Shown in pieces: positions 1 through 36,449 of a stretch of DNA of 41,313 bases; position 1 is the first letter of the stretch; each line of letters opens with the position of its first letter. Made by a program: the position numbers and the translations under genes. The notes below the pieces were generated by a model, which did no database searches, had not been told where the DNA came from, and worked only from the letters and a program-made list of their open reading frames with translations. Location: the NCBI GenBank assembly GCA_025454895.1, contig JALONO010000042.1, positions 1-41,313 on the forward strand, read 5' to 3'. The DNA is from Bernardetiaceae bacterium. Its GTDB lineage: Bacteria; Bacteroidota; Bacteroidia; Cytophagales; Thermoflexibacteraceae.

Positions 1-1742
1 ACGCGGGGGCTGAGCTGGCCCCGGAAGTTCTGGTTTTTGTCGTAGCGGAGCGAGCCGGTCAGTTTGAGCCGTTCCTCAAACAGGTTTTTCTGGGCTTGCA
101 CATAACCGCCAAACTCGTTGATGTTGTACTCGCTGCCGTCGGCTTTGGTCAAGAACAGGGTGCCGCCCGAGTTGAGGTCATAGGTGCGGAAATTGCCGCC
201 CACCACGATGTCGACCGTTTTGGGGTCAATGATCTTCTTGAAATTGTACATGAACTCGGCGTGGTACAGGTTGGTGCGGTCCAGGAAGAACGCGCCCACG
301 CCCGCCCCACTGGGCCTGGGCGGCGCGCCGGGCGGCTTCCAGGGCGGCGGGTTGGGCCAATCCCTGGCCCAAGGCCCCGGCAAACGTGGTGGCAAACGTG
401 GTGAGCGCGCCCTGGGCAAAGTTGCCAAAGTACTGGGGGTACCAGGTTGGACTGGGCTTCCAGGCCTCGTTAATGCCCGAGCCCAGGATGCCGATGGCGT
501 AGCTCTCGCCCGAGCGCTCCTGGGTAGTGTAGGCGCGCACGTAGAAGTTGCTGCCCCGCACCTCGGCCTTGATCTGGCTCAGCCTAAAGTTGGACAGCGA
601 ATAGCGGTCGCCGGCCCCGGTGTACACCGAAGTGCCAAAGCCGAAGTTGCCCTGGATGATCGCCTCCACGTTGTCGCTGAGGCGGTAGTGCAGCGAGCCG
701 TTGAGTTTCAGGCTCTTGGTGGTATAGTCGGCCAGGTCGCGCTCCAGGTAGCCGGTGCGGGTAATGTCCGATACCTCGCGGCCAGGGATAATGGACTGGA
801 AAATGGCCTGGGGCGTTTGGCCCGTGAGCTGGAGCAGCGAGGCCCCGCCGATGCCCGGGTCGCGCAGGTCGTTGGCTTGCCAGTCGTTGGCTTGCAGGTA
901 GCCCACGTTGAATTTGAAGGCGAATTTGTTGTTGAACGCCTTGGCGTAGCGGGCCGCCACGTCGATCATGCCCGTGGCGCCCAGTTCCTCGCCCGTGTTG
1001 CGCGCGCGGCGGCCGGCCTCGTTCATCAGGCCGGTGCGCACGTAGGCACTGGCCCCTTGGTAGTCGAAGGGGCTTTTGCTGTTCATGAGCAAAATCCCGT
1101 TGATGGCGTTGGGACCGTACAGCGCCGAGGCCGCGCCGGGCAGCAGTTCCATGTTTTCCAAGTCCAACTCACTGATGCCCACAATGTTGCCCACGGAAAA
1201 GTTGAGGCCGGGGGCCTGGTTGTCCATCCCGTCGATCATCTGCACCATGCGCACGTTGCCGTTGGCGTTGAACCCCCGGGTGGTAACCGATTTGAAAAAT
1301 TGGCGGCCGGGGTTTCGCGCACCTGCAAAATGTCCATGCGCTCCACGCTCACCGGCGACTTGAGCACGCTCTCCTCCACCCGCGAGGCCGAGACCACCAC
1401 TTCTTGGCCCAGTACGGTTTGTTCTTGCATGGCCACGTCCACCGTGGTTTTGCCGTCGGTAATTTCCACTTCCTGCCCTTGGTAACCCACAATCGAGATT
1501 TGGAGCGTAAACGGCGGGGCGGCGTTCACCTTGAGCGAGAATTTGCCGCTCAGGTCGGTTACCGTGCCCACTACTTTGTCTTTCACTTTCACGTTTACCC
1601 CCACCAAAGGCTCTTTGGTGCTCGCATCGGTAACGGTGCCCGTAACCGTGGTGGACTGAGCTAAAGCCTGACCGCTCACTAGTCCCATGAAAAACAGGCA
1701 AACCCACCAAGGTTTGGCTGCGCGTAAGTAAATTGTTCTCAT
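1..1742 (-). pseudogene. TonB-dependent outer-membrane receptor, 3' end off the window, two frame breaks
   Basis: Outer-membrane TonB-dependent transporter; the substrate cannot be told. The ATG at 1742 opens a protein with a signal peptide (hydrophobic stretch ending ALAQ), then a carboxypeptidase-regulatory-like beta-sandwich (VTGTVTDASTKEPLVGVNV, about residues 25-110) and the start of the plug. The frame changes near 1310: before it the protein reads ...VRETPAANF, after it FKSVTTRGFNANGN, and the roughly 20 plug residues normally found between these motifs are missing. The second frame carries the plug (DGMDNQAPGLNF, SALYGPNAINGILL) and early barrel strands to about 305. There the frame changes again and continues as GAFFLDRTNLYHAEFMYNF to base 1, again with a segment apparently missing. 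The family is clear. Both breaks look like small deletions, not single-base slips. Either this is a decaying gene or the assembly has errors. Confidence 0.85.
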
Positions 1743-2040
1743 TTCCACTTGAAATTAAGTAATTGTGATGCTGAATTAAGTAAGGTAAAGATTAAAGAAC
1801 TACTCACTAACCAGGGATAGGATGCTGAAGCGAGACCTCTTCCTGGTTATTTGGTAAGCTAGATTTAGGTTAATTTGATGAAAATCAATGAGTAAATAGA
1901 AAGCAGTAGTGTTGTCTTGGATACTTTTTCCACCAAGGAAAGCAAAAAAATCGACTCTTGTTTAAAGATGAAAATAAGTGTTTAATTTAATCAACCGATG
2001 AGTATGTAAGATGTTCGGGTAATTGACCGGAATTTGGGGG
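1743..2040. other. AT-rich intergenic region upstream of the receptor gene
   Basis: This AT-rich stretch of about 300 bp lies between the start of the TonB receptor gene and the initiator-tRNA terminator. It should hold the receptor promoter on the minus strand, but I found no convincing TAnnTTTG box with a partner -33 element. No credible open reading frame or repeat was seen. Confidence 0.4.
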
Positions 2041-15430: not shown

Positions 15431-15545
15431 AATGACTAAATGATTGCATGATTGCATGATTGCATGATTGCATGATTGCATGATTGCATGATTGCATGAT
15501 CTTCTATTTGATTATAAATTATTTATAGATGGTAAATAGAAAATC
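15431..15545 (+). repeat. Dispersed AT-rich intergenic repeat, copy B (expanded and divergent)
   Basis: Begins TGACTAAATGATTGCATGAT like the other copies, but the TGATTGCA block is expanded into a tandem array (15441-15500). After the array, TTTGATTATAAATTATTTA corresponds to the central block of copies C, D and E. The right end has drifted beyond recognition. Confidence 0.55.
15441..15500 (+). repeat. 8-bp tandem repeat, unit TGATTGCA, 7.5 copies
   Basis: Sixty bases of perfect TGATTGCA repeats inside copy B of the dispersed repeat. All other copies carry the unit once. The absence of any mismatch suggests recent slippage expansion. It is upstream of the thioesterase start (15405), so it could alter that promoter region. 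Confidence 0.95.
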
Positions 15546-27265: not shown

Positions 27266-28522
27266 TTAGCCTTCGTAGCGGCGCAATAGCACCGAGCAGT
27301 TGTGGCCCCCAAACCCGAAAGTATTGCTCAACGCCACCCGCACCGGCCGGGCCTGGGCTTTGTTGAAGGTAAAGTTGAGCCGAGGGTCAAAGACCTCGTC
27401 GTCAGTAAAGTGGTTGATGGTGGGGGGGATCGTTTGTTTGGTGATGGCAAACACCGCCGCAATGGCCTCGACGGCTCCGGCGGCGCCTAATAAATGCCCC
27501 GTCATGGATTTGGTAGAACTGATGCTGAGTTGGTAGGCGTGCTCGCCGAACACCCGCTGGATGGCCAGTACTTCGCTGATGTCGCCCAGCGGGGTAGAAG
27601 TACCGTGTACGTTGATATAATCTACTTCGTGGGGGGCAATGCCGGCATCGGCCAAGGCGTTGCGCATGACGTTGCTGGCCCCCAGGCCGTCAGGGTGGGG
27701 GGCCGTAATGTGGTGCGCGTCGGCACTGAGGCCGCCCCCGATCACCTCGGCGTAAATGTTGGCCCCTCGGGCCAGAGCGTGCCCCAGTTCTTCCAACACC
27801 AAGGCCCCGGCCCCTTCGCCCATTACAAAACCGTCGCGGTCTTTGTCAAACGGCCGCGAGGCGGTTTGCGGGTCGTCGTTCCGTTCCGACAAGGCCCGCA
27901 TGGCGTTAAACCCGCCAATGCCGGCCTGGGTAACGGCGGCTTCGGCCCCGCCGGTTACGATGGCTTCGGCTTTGCCGTACCTGATGTACATGAGCGCATC
28001 CACCAGGGCGTTGCTGGACGAGGCACAAGCGGACACCGTGATGAAATTAGGCCCCCGGAACCCGTATTTGATCGAGATATGGCCCGCCACAATGTCGGCG
28101 ATCATTTTGGGGATGAAGAAAGGGTTGAACCGGGGGTGCTGCTGGCTGGTGGTGAAAAAGCCCTCGATCTCGTCTTGAAAAGTGGTGATGCCCCCAATGC
28201 CAGAGCCGAAGATCACCCCCACGCGGTCAAGGTTGGCCGTTGCTTGGGTCAGGCCGGAGTCGGCCACGGCCTCATCGGCAGCGGCCAGGGCGTATTGGGC
28301 AAAGGGGTCCAATTTACGGGCCTCTTTTTTGTCCATGTTGGCGGTGGGGTCAAAGCCTTTGACCTCGCAAGCAAACTGGGTACGGAACTTCTCCGGGTCA
28401 AAATGGGTAATACGGGCCGCTCCACTCTGGCCTTGGGCCAGGCCGTTCCAATAGGCGGCCAGGTTGTTGCCGATAGGAGTAAGGGCCCCCAGCCCGGTAA
28501 TTACAACACGACGTGGCTTCAT
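27266..28522 (-). CDS. fabF: 3-oxoacyl-ACP synthase II (FabF)
   Basis: Elongating condensing enzyme of fatty-acid synthesis. 418 aa. Cys166 lies in TVSACASSSNA, and the two His residues are in NVHGTSTPLGD and KSMTGHLLGAAG. The N-terminus MKPRRVVITGLGALTPIGNN and C-terminus NTFGFGGHNCSVLLRRY are standard. It lies downstream of acpP with a 126-bp gap that contains a long hairpin, and upstream of rnc. Confidence 0.98.
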   Translation of the reverse strand: MKPRRVVITGLGALTPIGNNLAAYWNGLAQGQSGAARITHFDPEKFRTQFACEVKGFDPTANMDKKEARKLDPFAQYALAAADEAVADSGLTQATANLDRVGVIFGSGIGGITTFQDEIEGFFTTSQQHPRFNPFFIPKMIADIVAGHISIKYGFRGPNFITVSACASSSNALVDALMYIRYGKAEAIVTGGAEAAVTQAGIGGFNAMRALSERNDDPQTASRPFDKDRDGFVMGEGAGALVLEELGHALARGANIYAEVIGGGLSADAHHITAPHPDGLGASNVMRNALADAGIAPHEVDYINVHGTSTPLGDISEVLAIQRVFGEHAYQLSISSTKSMTGHLLGAAGAVEAIAAVFAITKQTIPPTINHFTDDEVFDPRLNFTFNKAQARPVRVALSNTFGFGGHNCSVLLRRYEG

Positions 28523-34905: not shown

Positions 34906-35211
34906 CTACTCGTTGTACGTTTTGCCTTTCCAGTACCACCATTTGAGCTTAGCCGGGTCGGGCGTGGGGTCGGTGGCAAAGTACACCGCGCACCTAAGCG
35001 TGTACAACACGCACACGTCGTGTACGATGCCGCTCAGTTGGTTGAGCCGCTGGTACATGTGCTGCGGGTTTTGCCCGGCCAGGTCGGCCACCTGGCGGAT
35101 GCCCAGGTGCCAGAGGTCCAGCGCACCGGCTGGGCCGATGCTGGGGATTTGCTGCAACTGTTTGAGCGTGAGTTTTTGACTGCGCTCTTCGGCGGAAATG
35201 GCGGTGGGCAT
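34906..35211 (-). CDS. Cdd1-like helix-hairpin-helix protein
   Basis: 101 aa. LQQIPSIGPAGALDLWHLGI is a helix-hairpin-helix DNA-binding motif, followed by a RCAVYFATDPTPDPAKLKWWYWK segment typical of the family called pathogenicity locus Cdd1. The function is unknown; the name comes from a Clostridioides locus and implies no virulence here. The ATG at 35211 is preferred to the TTG two codons upstream. It is 80 bp downstream of the S24 repressor, possibly co-transcribed. Confidence 0.8.
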   Translation of the reverse strand: MPTAISAEERSQKLTLKQLQQIPSIGPAGALDLWHLGIRQVADLAGQNPQHMYQRLNQLSGIVHDVCVLYTLRCAVYFATDPTPDPAKLKWWYWKGKTYNE

Positions 35212-35291
35212 GGTCAATCCAAGATTTTAAGATAAAAATTTTAGGCGACCGGGCTGGCCGGGCCGTGGGACCTGCCTTGACGGCCCGGCGG

Positions 35292-36077
35292 TTACAGTAA
35301 CTTCAGCCGTTCCATTCGCTCCAGCCGGTCCTCGATCTGGGCCAGCCGGTCGTCCAGCCCGGCATTGAGCGACAGATCGGCGGAGAGTTTCCAGCTCACG
35401 CGCCAAATTTCCAGCACCTCGTTGTAGGTAAGGTTGAAGGCGGTGTGCCGTTTGTTGTCGCTTAGGCAGGTAACGTAGCCGTTGCTCAGGCGGTTTTTGA
35501 TGCGTTTTACTTGCAGGCCGCGCTCGTCGGTTACGAGCACGCACACTTCGCCGTCGTTGAGGTAGTCCCAGTCGGCCCGCTCGCACAAGTGGCAAATGAG
35601 GTAGTCGCCGTCGTGCAGGGTAGGTTCCATACTATCGCCGGTTACTTGCAGGGCGTAAAACTGCTTGCCGCGCACAAAGCTGGTGGGCAGGTTGATGGCG
35701 TCCATCTCCTCGAAATACTCTTGGGTTTTGTACCCGGTGAGGTAGTTGGCGGCCGCCCGGCGGTTAATGACCGGGATGCTCACGTTGCCGGCGGTGTCCT
35801 GGGTGGTAACCAGCACGCGCTCGGTGGCGGGCTTGAGCTTGGCCTTTTCCATTTGCCCGCGCCCGTTGATGAGCCACTCGATATTGATAGCCGGGTAGGT
35901 TTCGCAGATTTTTTGGAGCACCTCGAAACCCGGCTTGCTCTGTTGTTTGCCCTTGGTGTAGTTGTTGATCACCGCCGGTTTTACGCCGATCGACTCGGCG
36001 AACCGCTTTTCGTTGCCTTCGGCGAAGCGTTCGATCACGCTTGTAAGTCGTTGGCTGACAGGGTTTTGGAGAGTCAT
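35292..36077 (-). CDS. HTH-type repressor with S24/LexA-like C-terminal domain
   Basis: 261-aa transcription regulator. The N-terminal helix-turn-helix is about residues 8-75 (RFAESIGVKPAVINNYTKGK). The C-terminal S24 fold has Ser149 in VTGDSMEPTLHDGDYLI and Lys191 in LQVKRIKNR, the peptidase dyad. A coiled-coil-like tail (LDDRLAQIEDRLERMERLK) may add oligomerisation. An Ala-Gly pair occurs near residue 97, but whether it is a self-cleavage site is unclear; many Bacteroidota relatives are thought not to cleave. It is divergent from a small basic protein gene, with face-to-face promoters between them. Confidence 0.88.
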   Translation of the reverse strand: MTLQNPVSQRLTSVIERFAEGNEKRFAESIGVKPAVINNYTKGKQQSKPGFEVLQKICETYPAINIEWLINGRGQMEKAKLKPATERVLVTTQDTAGNVSIPVINRRAAANYLTGYKTQEYFEEMDAINLPTSFVRGKQFYALQVTGDSMEPTLHDGDYLICHLCERADWDYLNDGEVCVLVTDERGLQVKRIKNRLSNGYVTCLSDNKRHTAFNLTYNEVLEIWRVSWKLSADLSLNAGLDDRLAQIEDRLERMERLKLL

Positions 36078-36098
36078 AAATTTTTTTAATGAAAAATA

Positions 36099-36112
36099 AA
36101 TAAATATTTATT
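36099..36112. promoter_or_regulatory. AT palindrome, possible operator 1
   Basis: Perfect 14-bp palindrome AATAAATATTTATT. It overlaps the -33 region of the rightward promoter and lies in the leader of the repressor mRNA. The candidate binder is the S24 repressor; AT-rich palindromes can also occur by chance. Confidence 0.4.
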
Positions 36113-36140
36113 GACTTGTCGGAATCATTACCTATTTTTG
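36111..36140 (+). promoter_or_regulatory. Rightward promoter toward the small basic protein gene
   Basis: TTGA (36111-36114), 18 bp, then TATTTTTG (36133-36140). The start would be near 36147, giving a leader of about 120 nt. Its -7 box is 5 bp from the -7 box of the leftward promoter. Confidence 0.65.
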
Positions 36141-36145
36141 TAGGG

Positions 36146-36177
36146 CAAAAGTAGATCACTAAATAATTATTTCCAAA
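36146..36177 (-). promoter_or_regulatory. Leftward promoter of the S24 repressor
   Basis: On the minus strand, TTTG (36177-36174), 20 bp, then TACTTTTG (36153-36146). The start would be near 36139. The two promoters face each other and overlap, so only one can be occupied at a time. Confidence 0.7.
36161..36172. promoter_or_regulatory. AT palindrome, possible operator 2
   Basis: Perfect 12-bp palindrome AAATAATTATTT in the spacer of the leftward promoter, about 61 bp centre-to-centre from operator 1. Same caution about AT composition. Confidence 0.35.
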
Positions 36178-36266
36178 ACCAACTCGCACAAAACGAGCAA
36201 ATTATTCCTGTTTTTTGCTTGGGATGTCAATATTAATTAAGTAAAACCTTAAAATATTTCTTGATT

Positions 36267-36449
36267 ATGAACCGCTCAAACGTGAATAACTTGGATCAAT
36301 TCATCCAAGAAATGGCCAGCAAGCAGGTGCTGGTGGTCAACCGCAACCGCCGTTACGTGATGGTGCGCTACGATATGTCGGACTTATATGTGCCCAGCGC
36401 GCCCGCCAAACCGGGCAAACGCAAACGCATTAAACGGCGGGCCGAATAA
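36267..36449 (+). CDS. Small basic protein of unknown function
   Basis: 60 aa, MNRSNVNNLDQFIQEMASKQ at the start, a central VLVVNRNRRYVMVRYDMSDLYV that looks like a beta hairpin, and a strongly basic tail (KPGKRKRIKRRAE). No family recognised; the tail suggests nucleic-acid binding. It has its own promoter and is followed by a terminator, so it is a monocistronic unit divergent from the S24 repressor, an arrangement typical of a repressor and its target. Confidence 0.6.
   Translation: MNRSNVNNLDQFIQEMASKQVLVVNRNRRYVMVRYDMSDLYVPSAPAKPGKRKRIKRRAE

What the first reader, a model, noticed from the sequence alone, without database searches (positions are those of the whole stretch)
36099..36177. 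Face-to-face overlapping promoters and two palindromes between an S24 repressor and a small basic protein gene
Rightward (TTGA-18-TATTTTTG) and leftward (TTTG-20-TACTTTTG) promoters point into each other with -7 boxes only 5 bp apart, so occupancy is mutually exclusive. AT palindromes lie near each outer edge, about 61 bp apart. With an S24-type repressor on one side and a 60-aa basic protein on the other, this has the logic of a bistable or damage-responsive switch, although no other phage genes are present.
Basis: partly seen in the sequence, partly recalled or inferred. Interest (0 to 1): 0.65.

Follow-up and report, generated by a model that had tools for sequence, protein, structure and literature searches.

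The report
LexA-like repressor's face-to-face promoter switch
A bacterial control gene related to the DNA-damage repressor LexA and a tiny partner gene are read from two promoters that collide head-on, under binding-site-like elements that also lie before the DNA-repair gene recA, yet the repressor has lost half of the standard self-cutting site, so this looks like an altered damage-response switch.

Summary
Between an HTH+S24 repressor gene (35292-36077, -) and a 60-aa gene (36267-36449, +), two Bacteroidetes-type promoters face each other with -7 boxes 5 bp apart; no other place in the 4.58 Mb genome has both full promoters so arranged. In the bacterial family the small gene occurs in 5 of 13 genomes, always divergent from the repressor, although the surrounding genes differ. 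The 5-6 bp gap recurs in relatives; where the small gene is decayed, its -33 TTG is mutated.

The two "palindromes" are better read as two inverted copies of one operator-like element (TAAATATTTATTGACT, TAATTATTTAGTGATC), found with a matrix trained only on recA promoters. All 11 recA promoters in repressor-carrying genomes hold its core; both in genomes lacking it do not.

My reading: a chromosomal, autoregulated, LexA-like repressor that probably also controls recA and the small gene. Against simple damage induction, the scissile Ala-Gly is Ala-Asn in the whole clade while the Ser-Lys dyad is kept, so RecA-triggered self-cleavage is doubtful. The small protein is of unknown kind; its basic charge is not conserved. 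Bistability is unproven. This is a new variant of the non-canonical LexA type, not a phage switch.

The parts
35292..36077 (-). 261-aa repressor gene: N-terminal HTH, C-terminal S24 (LexA-like) domain, extra C-terminal helix
   Evidence: Pfam HTH_3 and Peptidase_S24 above cut-off; AlphaFold2 model, pLDDT 78, best matches LexA structures
35745..35756 (-). codons for Ala108-Ala109-Ala110-Asn111, the position of the scissile Ala-Gly bond of S24 repressors, here Ala-Asn
   Evidence: alignments: Asn in all 11 family sequences plus L012 and L013, Gly in L014-L031
35631..35633 (-). codon of the predicted catalytic Ser149
   Evidence: invariant GDSM motif
35505..35507 (-). codon of the predicted catalytic Lys191
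   Evidence: invariant Lys in GLQ(V/I)KR
36099..36112 (.). palindrome 1, AATAAATATTTATT
36101..36116 (+). OL, operator-like element TAAATATTTATTGACT; covers the rightward -33
   Evidence: best hit of a recA-only matrix in the held-out promoter, p below 0.005; above all 2166 control upstream regions of G008
36111..36114 (+). rightward promoter -33 (TTGA)
36133..36140 (+). rightward promoter -7 box TATTTTTG; predicted start about 36145
   Evidence: TAnnTTTG consensus and spacing
36146..36153 (-). leftward promoter -7 box TACTTTTG; predicted start about 36141
   Evidence: conserved with TTG-N20 spacing in most relatives
36154..36169 (-). OR, inverted second copy of the element, TAATTATTTAGTGATC, in the leftward promoter spacer
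   Evidence: second-best hit of the recA-only matrix
36161..36172 (.). palindrome 2, AAATAATTATTT
36174..36177 (-). leftward promoter -33 (TTTG)
36267..36449 (+). 60-aa small protein gene, no known family
   Evidence: no family match; homologs only beside the repressor; dN below dS in two pairs of relatives

Best explanation
This is a chromosomal, autoregulated, LexA-like control point. The S24 repressor binds two inverted operators (OL, OR) that lie over two mutually exclusive face-to-face sigma-A promoters. It thereby represses both its own gene and the divergent small gene, and through the same element it also represses recA. When the repressor is removed, the two promoters compete for one piece of DNA, so output splits between replenishing the repressor and making the small protein. 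Shown here: the promoter layout, its conservation, the linkage, and a recA-shared element at both promoters. Inferred: that the repressor binds this element and that it responds to DNA damage. Unresolved: how it is inactivated. The canonical Ala-Gly cleavage site is Ala-Asn, so it is either cleaved unusually or slowly, or released by another factor, possibly the small protein.
For: Layout and its uniqueness. Linkage in 5 of 5 genomes that have the small gene although other neighbours differ. The small gene's -33 TTG is lost where that gene is decayed. LexA-like fold with the Ser-Lys dyad kept. Motif shared by recA and repressor promoters, log-likelihood 75.4 against a shuffle maximum of 49.4; a recA-trained matrix finds OL and OR as its two best hits; the window scores above 2166 control regions. 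The recA core element is present in 11 of 11 genomes with the repressor and 0 of 2 without. The own genome has only two S24 proteins, both of this clade, so no other S24 repressor is available for recA. A 1-mismatch site lies before an SRAP-type gene.
Against: No binding or expression data. The held-out scan is not significant in G003, G004, G007, G008, G010 and G012. Two Y-family polymerase genes lack the element, and no clear repair genes stand out in the partial G008 scan, so any regulon is very small. The scissile Gly is lost. The element was noticed by eye before it was tested.
Confidence: 0.6

Rival explanations
1. Two-protein bistable switch of the P2/186 type: the small protein counteracts the repressor (as an antirepressor or a Cro/Cox-like repressor), and the mutually exclusive promoters give two stable states.
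For: Conserved pairing and promoter exclusion. Loss of the scissile Gly would call for another way to release the repressor. Small antirepressors divergent from a regulator are known in phages (PMC10432266).
Against: The small protein has no HTH or other family match. The repressor persists without it in four genomes and with a decayed copy in one. The small protein is poorly conserved, with opposite charges in different genera.
Confidence: 0.17
2. Plain autoregulation of a divergent gene pair by a non-cleavable S24-type repressor that answers another signal; the resemblance to recA promoters reflects another shared promoter element.
For: Scissile Gly replaced throughout the clade; very small apparent regulon.
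Against: Shared motif well above shuffles, and the control regions of G008 score lower than the window's region; presence of the recA element follows presence of the repressor, 11 of 11 against 0 of 2.
Confidence: 0.2
3. The face-to-face boxes and palindromes are chance features of AT-rich intergenic DNA.
For: The intergenic region is 75% AT in a window of 56% GC.
Against: Shuffle frequency 5e-5, uniqueness in the genome, and conservation of both promoters and their gap in relatives.
Confidence: 0.03

Closest known systems
Non-canonical LexA proteins of Bacteroidetes (Sanchez-Osuna et al. 2021, PMC8565304)
   Same: HTH (PF01381) plus S24 domain, Ser-Lys dyad, extra C-terminal helix, autoregulation-like sites, element shared with recA
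   Different: Scissile Ala-Gly replaced by Ala-Asn; no GGA-N5-TCC or CTAA-N5-TTAG site; paired with a small-protein gene through face-to-face promoters; apparently much smaller regulon. That survey could not assign the Cytophagaceae homologs.
Canonical LexA (E. coli type)
   Same: LexA-like C-terminal fold (Foldseek) and probable control of recA and of itself
   Different: CI-type HTH instead of a winged helix; cleavage-site Gly lost; different operator
Face-to-face divergent promoters of phages P2 and 186 (from general knowledge)
   Same: Repressor and opposing gene driven by overlapping promoters that face each other
   Different: There the transcripts overlap and the opposing gene encodes a second DNA-binding regulator in a prophage; here the predicted transcripts do not overlap, the partner has no HTH, and there is no phage context
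Transcription factor-smORF modules of prophages (Silpe et al. 2023, PMC10432266)
   Same: A small protein without recognisable domains encoded divergently from a regulator and linked to a CI-type repressor
   Different: There a separate activator drives the small gene, whose product inactivates cI; here the divergent neighbour is the repressor itself and no antirepressor activity is shown

Membership tests
Non-canonical LexA of Bacteroidetes | N-terminal phage-repressor-type HTH (PF01381) | tested here: met
Non-canonical LexA of Bacteroidetes | C-terminal S24 domain with Ser-Lys dyad | tested here: met
Non-canonical LexA of Bacteroidetes | Extra C-terminal helix | tested here: met
   helix 241-260 in the model; reported for the family
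Non-canonical LexA of Bacteroidetes | Scissile Ala-Gly bond | tested here: not met
   Ala-Asn in all 11 family sequences
Non-canonical LexA of Bacteroidetes | GGA-N5-TCC or CTAA-N5-TTAG (or TTAC-N5-GTAA) operator at its own promoter | tested here: not met
   none in 11 upstream regions
Non-canonical LexA of Bacteroidetes | Operator shared with SOS genes such as recA | tested here: inconclusive
   shared with recA and perhaps an SRAP-type gene, not with two polymerase genes
Non-canonical LexA of Bacteroidetes | DNA binding and mitomycin C induction | not testable with these tools
   needs EMSA and RT-qPCR
P2/186-type lysogeny switch | Overlapping face-to-face promoters | tested here: met
P2/186-type lysogeny switch | Opposing gene encodes a second DNA-binding regulator, within a prophage | tested here: not met
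   no HTH or family match, no convincing PHROG match, no relatives of the repressor in viral contigs, housekeeping neighbours
P2/186-type lysogeny switch | Bistability | not testable with these tools
   needs single-cell reporters

The most novel reading that the evidence does not exclude
A clade of recA-controlling S24 repressors has replaced the scissile Ala-Gly by Ala-Asn and so runs a damage response without standard RecA-triggered self-cleavage. Release would be by a dedicated small partner protein expressed from a mutually exclusive face-to-face promoter, or by cleavage at Ala-Asn.
Probability: 0.25. Interest if true: 0.8.

Novelty: new variant of a known kind. Interest (0 to 1): 0.52.

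Why it matters
The SOS regulators of the Cytophagaceae were left unassigned in the 2021 survey of Bacteroidetes (PMC8565304). This locus offers a candidate regulator and a candidate operator for one such lineage (Thermoflexibacter and relatives). It also makes a clear question testable: can an S24 repressor that keeps its Ser-Lys dyad but has lost the scissile glycine still respond to DNA damage, and if so how? The strain Thermoflexibacter ruber DSM 9560 carries the pair.

Tried and rejected
Exact palindromes as operators: AATAATTATT and AATAAATATTTATT occur elsewhere in the genome without an evident regulon and are not conserved at the repressor in relatives. Published Bacteroidetes SOS motifs: none in 11 upstream regions. 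Phage origin: no viral-contig relatives, phage hits about 32% identity or below. Defence or toxin-antitoxin partner: no PADLOC match for the small protein. Structure of the small protein: pLDDT 59, so no fold search was made; the profile search of solved structures gave only E above 0.5. Structured leader RNA of the small gene: z = -0.38, no Rfam match at the locus. An alternative cleavage bond in DTAGN just before the S24 domain: Ala-Gly in only 4 of 11 sequences. Exact 7- or 8-mers shared between recA and repressor promoters: not above shuffles; only the matrix is.

Full report
Observation. The bases are as described. Rightward: TTGA 36111-36114 and TATTTTTG 36133-36140. Leftward: TTTG 36177-36174 and TACTTTTG 36153-36146. 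The -7 boxes are 5 bp apart. TAnnTTTG is the sigma-A -7 box of flavobacteria and occupies -12 to -5 (PMC9723704), so the predicted starts are about 36145 and 36141. The polymerases face each other, but the transcripts diverge from almost the same point. Each polymerase footprint would cover the other promoter's core (inference).

Chance. The full two-sided arrangement occurs in 5e-5 of dinucleotide shuffles of 36078-36266. In the 4.58 Mb genome, a search for one full promoter facing a -7 box returned four matches; two are this locus read from either strand, and no other place matches both ways. The palindromes alone are only mildly unusual (p about 0.01-0.02).

Conservation. The window's genome belongs to a family of 13 held genomes that includes Thermoflexibacter ruber. 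Nine other members have the repressor at 52-64% identity, and the own genome has a paralog. The small protein is found in 5 genomes (G000, G004, G006, G008, G009), always divergent from and next to the repressor; none of the 391 genomes searched in the order holds it elsewhere. The other neighbours of the window were not found in the relatives' loci, so the pair stays together while its surroundings change. The face-to-face boxes recur with gaps of 5-6 bp in L004, L005 and L006 and with 11 bp in L011; the leftward promoter keeps TTG-N20-TAnnTTTG spacing in L001, L004, L005 and L007-L011, and one base more in L006. In L007 the small gene is a pseudogene with an early stop, and the -33 TTG of its promoter is CTG. 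This supports the assignment of the rightward promoter to the small gene.

Repressor. HTH_3 and Peptidase_S24. An AlphaFold2 model (pLDDT 78) matches LexA structures best and ends in an extra helix (241-260), as reported for the Bacteroidetes non-canonical LexA proteins (PMC8565304). The recognition region is nearly invariant. Ser149 and Lys191 are invariant, but the Gly after the cleavage-site Ala is Asn in all 11 family sequences and in two proteins of other families (L012, L013); L014-L031 and two gut-phage relatives have Gly. The Asn proteins form one well-supported group (100/98). [quoted passage not shown] its structure 1JHF appears). Standard self-cleavage is therefore doubtful but not excluded.

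Operator. Upstream regions of recA in all 11 repressor-related genomes of the family (ten with the repressor found, plus G011, which is 62% complete and where none was found) hold TWATTGA/TCAATWA; the two recA regions of the other genomes lacking the repressor (G002, G005) do not. A motif search on recA plus repressor promoters gave TCAATAAaTAatTAta, log-likelihood 75.4 against 43.9 +/- 2.6 (maximum 49.4) in shuffles. A matrix trained on recA promoters only (itself barely above shuffles, 46.4 against a maximum of 45.0), applied to the held-out repressor promoter of this genome, returns as its two best hits the two flagged palindromes: TAAATATTTATTGACT (36101-36116, +) and TAATTATTTAGTGATC (36169-36154, -), p below 0.005. 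It is also significant in G006, G009, G001 and the paralog, but not in G003, G004, G007, G008, G010, G012. Against 2166 upstream regions from 2.33 Mb of G008, recA of G008 scores 16.2 (the near-identical G004 promoter was in the training set), the highest control is 10.8, the window's region scores 11.3, and G008's own repressor promoter scores 7.8, about rank 26. In the own genome a degenerate pattern fitted to the three sites matches exactly only at recA, OL and OR; one of the 1-mismatch sites lies about 45 bp upstream of an SRAP-type gene. COG2135 is among the SOS genes reported for Bacteroidetes (PMC8565304). Promoters of two Y-family polymerases lack the element.

Interpretation. The best-supported reading is an autoregulated LexA-like repressor with operators over both mutually exclusive promoters and before recA, with the small gene as a co-regulated output. 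Binding and damage response are inferred. The mode of inactivation is open. Rivals are a two-protein bistable switch with the small protein as antirepressor, plain autoregulation without a damage link, and chance.

Membership. It resembles the non-canonical LexA proteins in domains, fold and the recA link, but fails two tested features (scissile Ala-Gly, published operators), so I do not file it as a member; it may be a diverged branch that works similarly. It is not a P2/186 switch: no phage context and no second DNA-binding regulator.

Limits. All evidence is computational. The element was first noticed by eye and then tested, so the held-out scan and the G008 control are the parts to trust. 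The 11-against-2 count includes G011, whose incomplete genome showed no repressor; without it the count is 10 of 10 against 0 of 2. The own genome is in 389 contigs; the paralog lies at a contig end and its partner gene cannot be seen. G008 was read only in part.

Noticed in passing
L002 (G000:C205:8916-9692, -): Paralog of the repressor (59% identity, also Ala-Asn) at a contig end, with its own facing TAnnTTTG boxes 15 bp apart and a recA-type element between them; its divergent neighbour cannot be seen.
   Followed up: partly
L102 (G000:C277:4152-4166): A 1-mismatch copy of the element lies about 45 bp upstream of an SRAP-type (SOS response-associated peptidase) gene.
   Followed up: partly
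window 34906-35217 (-): Cdd1-family helix-hairpin-helix gene directly downstream of the repressor on the same strand; not found beside the repressor in relatives.
   Followed up: partly
L012 (G027) and L013 (G081): S24 repressors of two other families of the order also carry Ala-Asn in place of Ala-Gly and group with this clade.
   Followed up: partly
window 36226-36240 and loci L003-L007: A TCAATA(T/A)-like word recurs shortly before the start of the small gene in all its relatives; it could be a further site or a translation feature.
   Followed up: no
window 226-1748 (-): A TonB-dependent-receptor-like gene appears split between two overlapping frames, suggesting a frameshift or an assembly error.
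   Followed up: no
G000:C112 about 28380-28520 (L091); L107; window about 15450-15530 (L099): Short intergenic tandem repeats of about 8 bp (TAATGATT, TTTAGTCA, GATTGCAT), and single TAATCATTTAGTCAT-like words at many more places in this genome.
   Followed up: no
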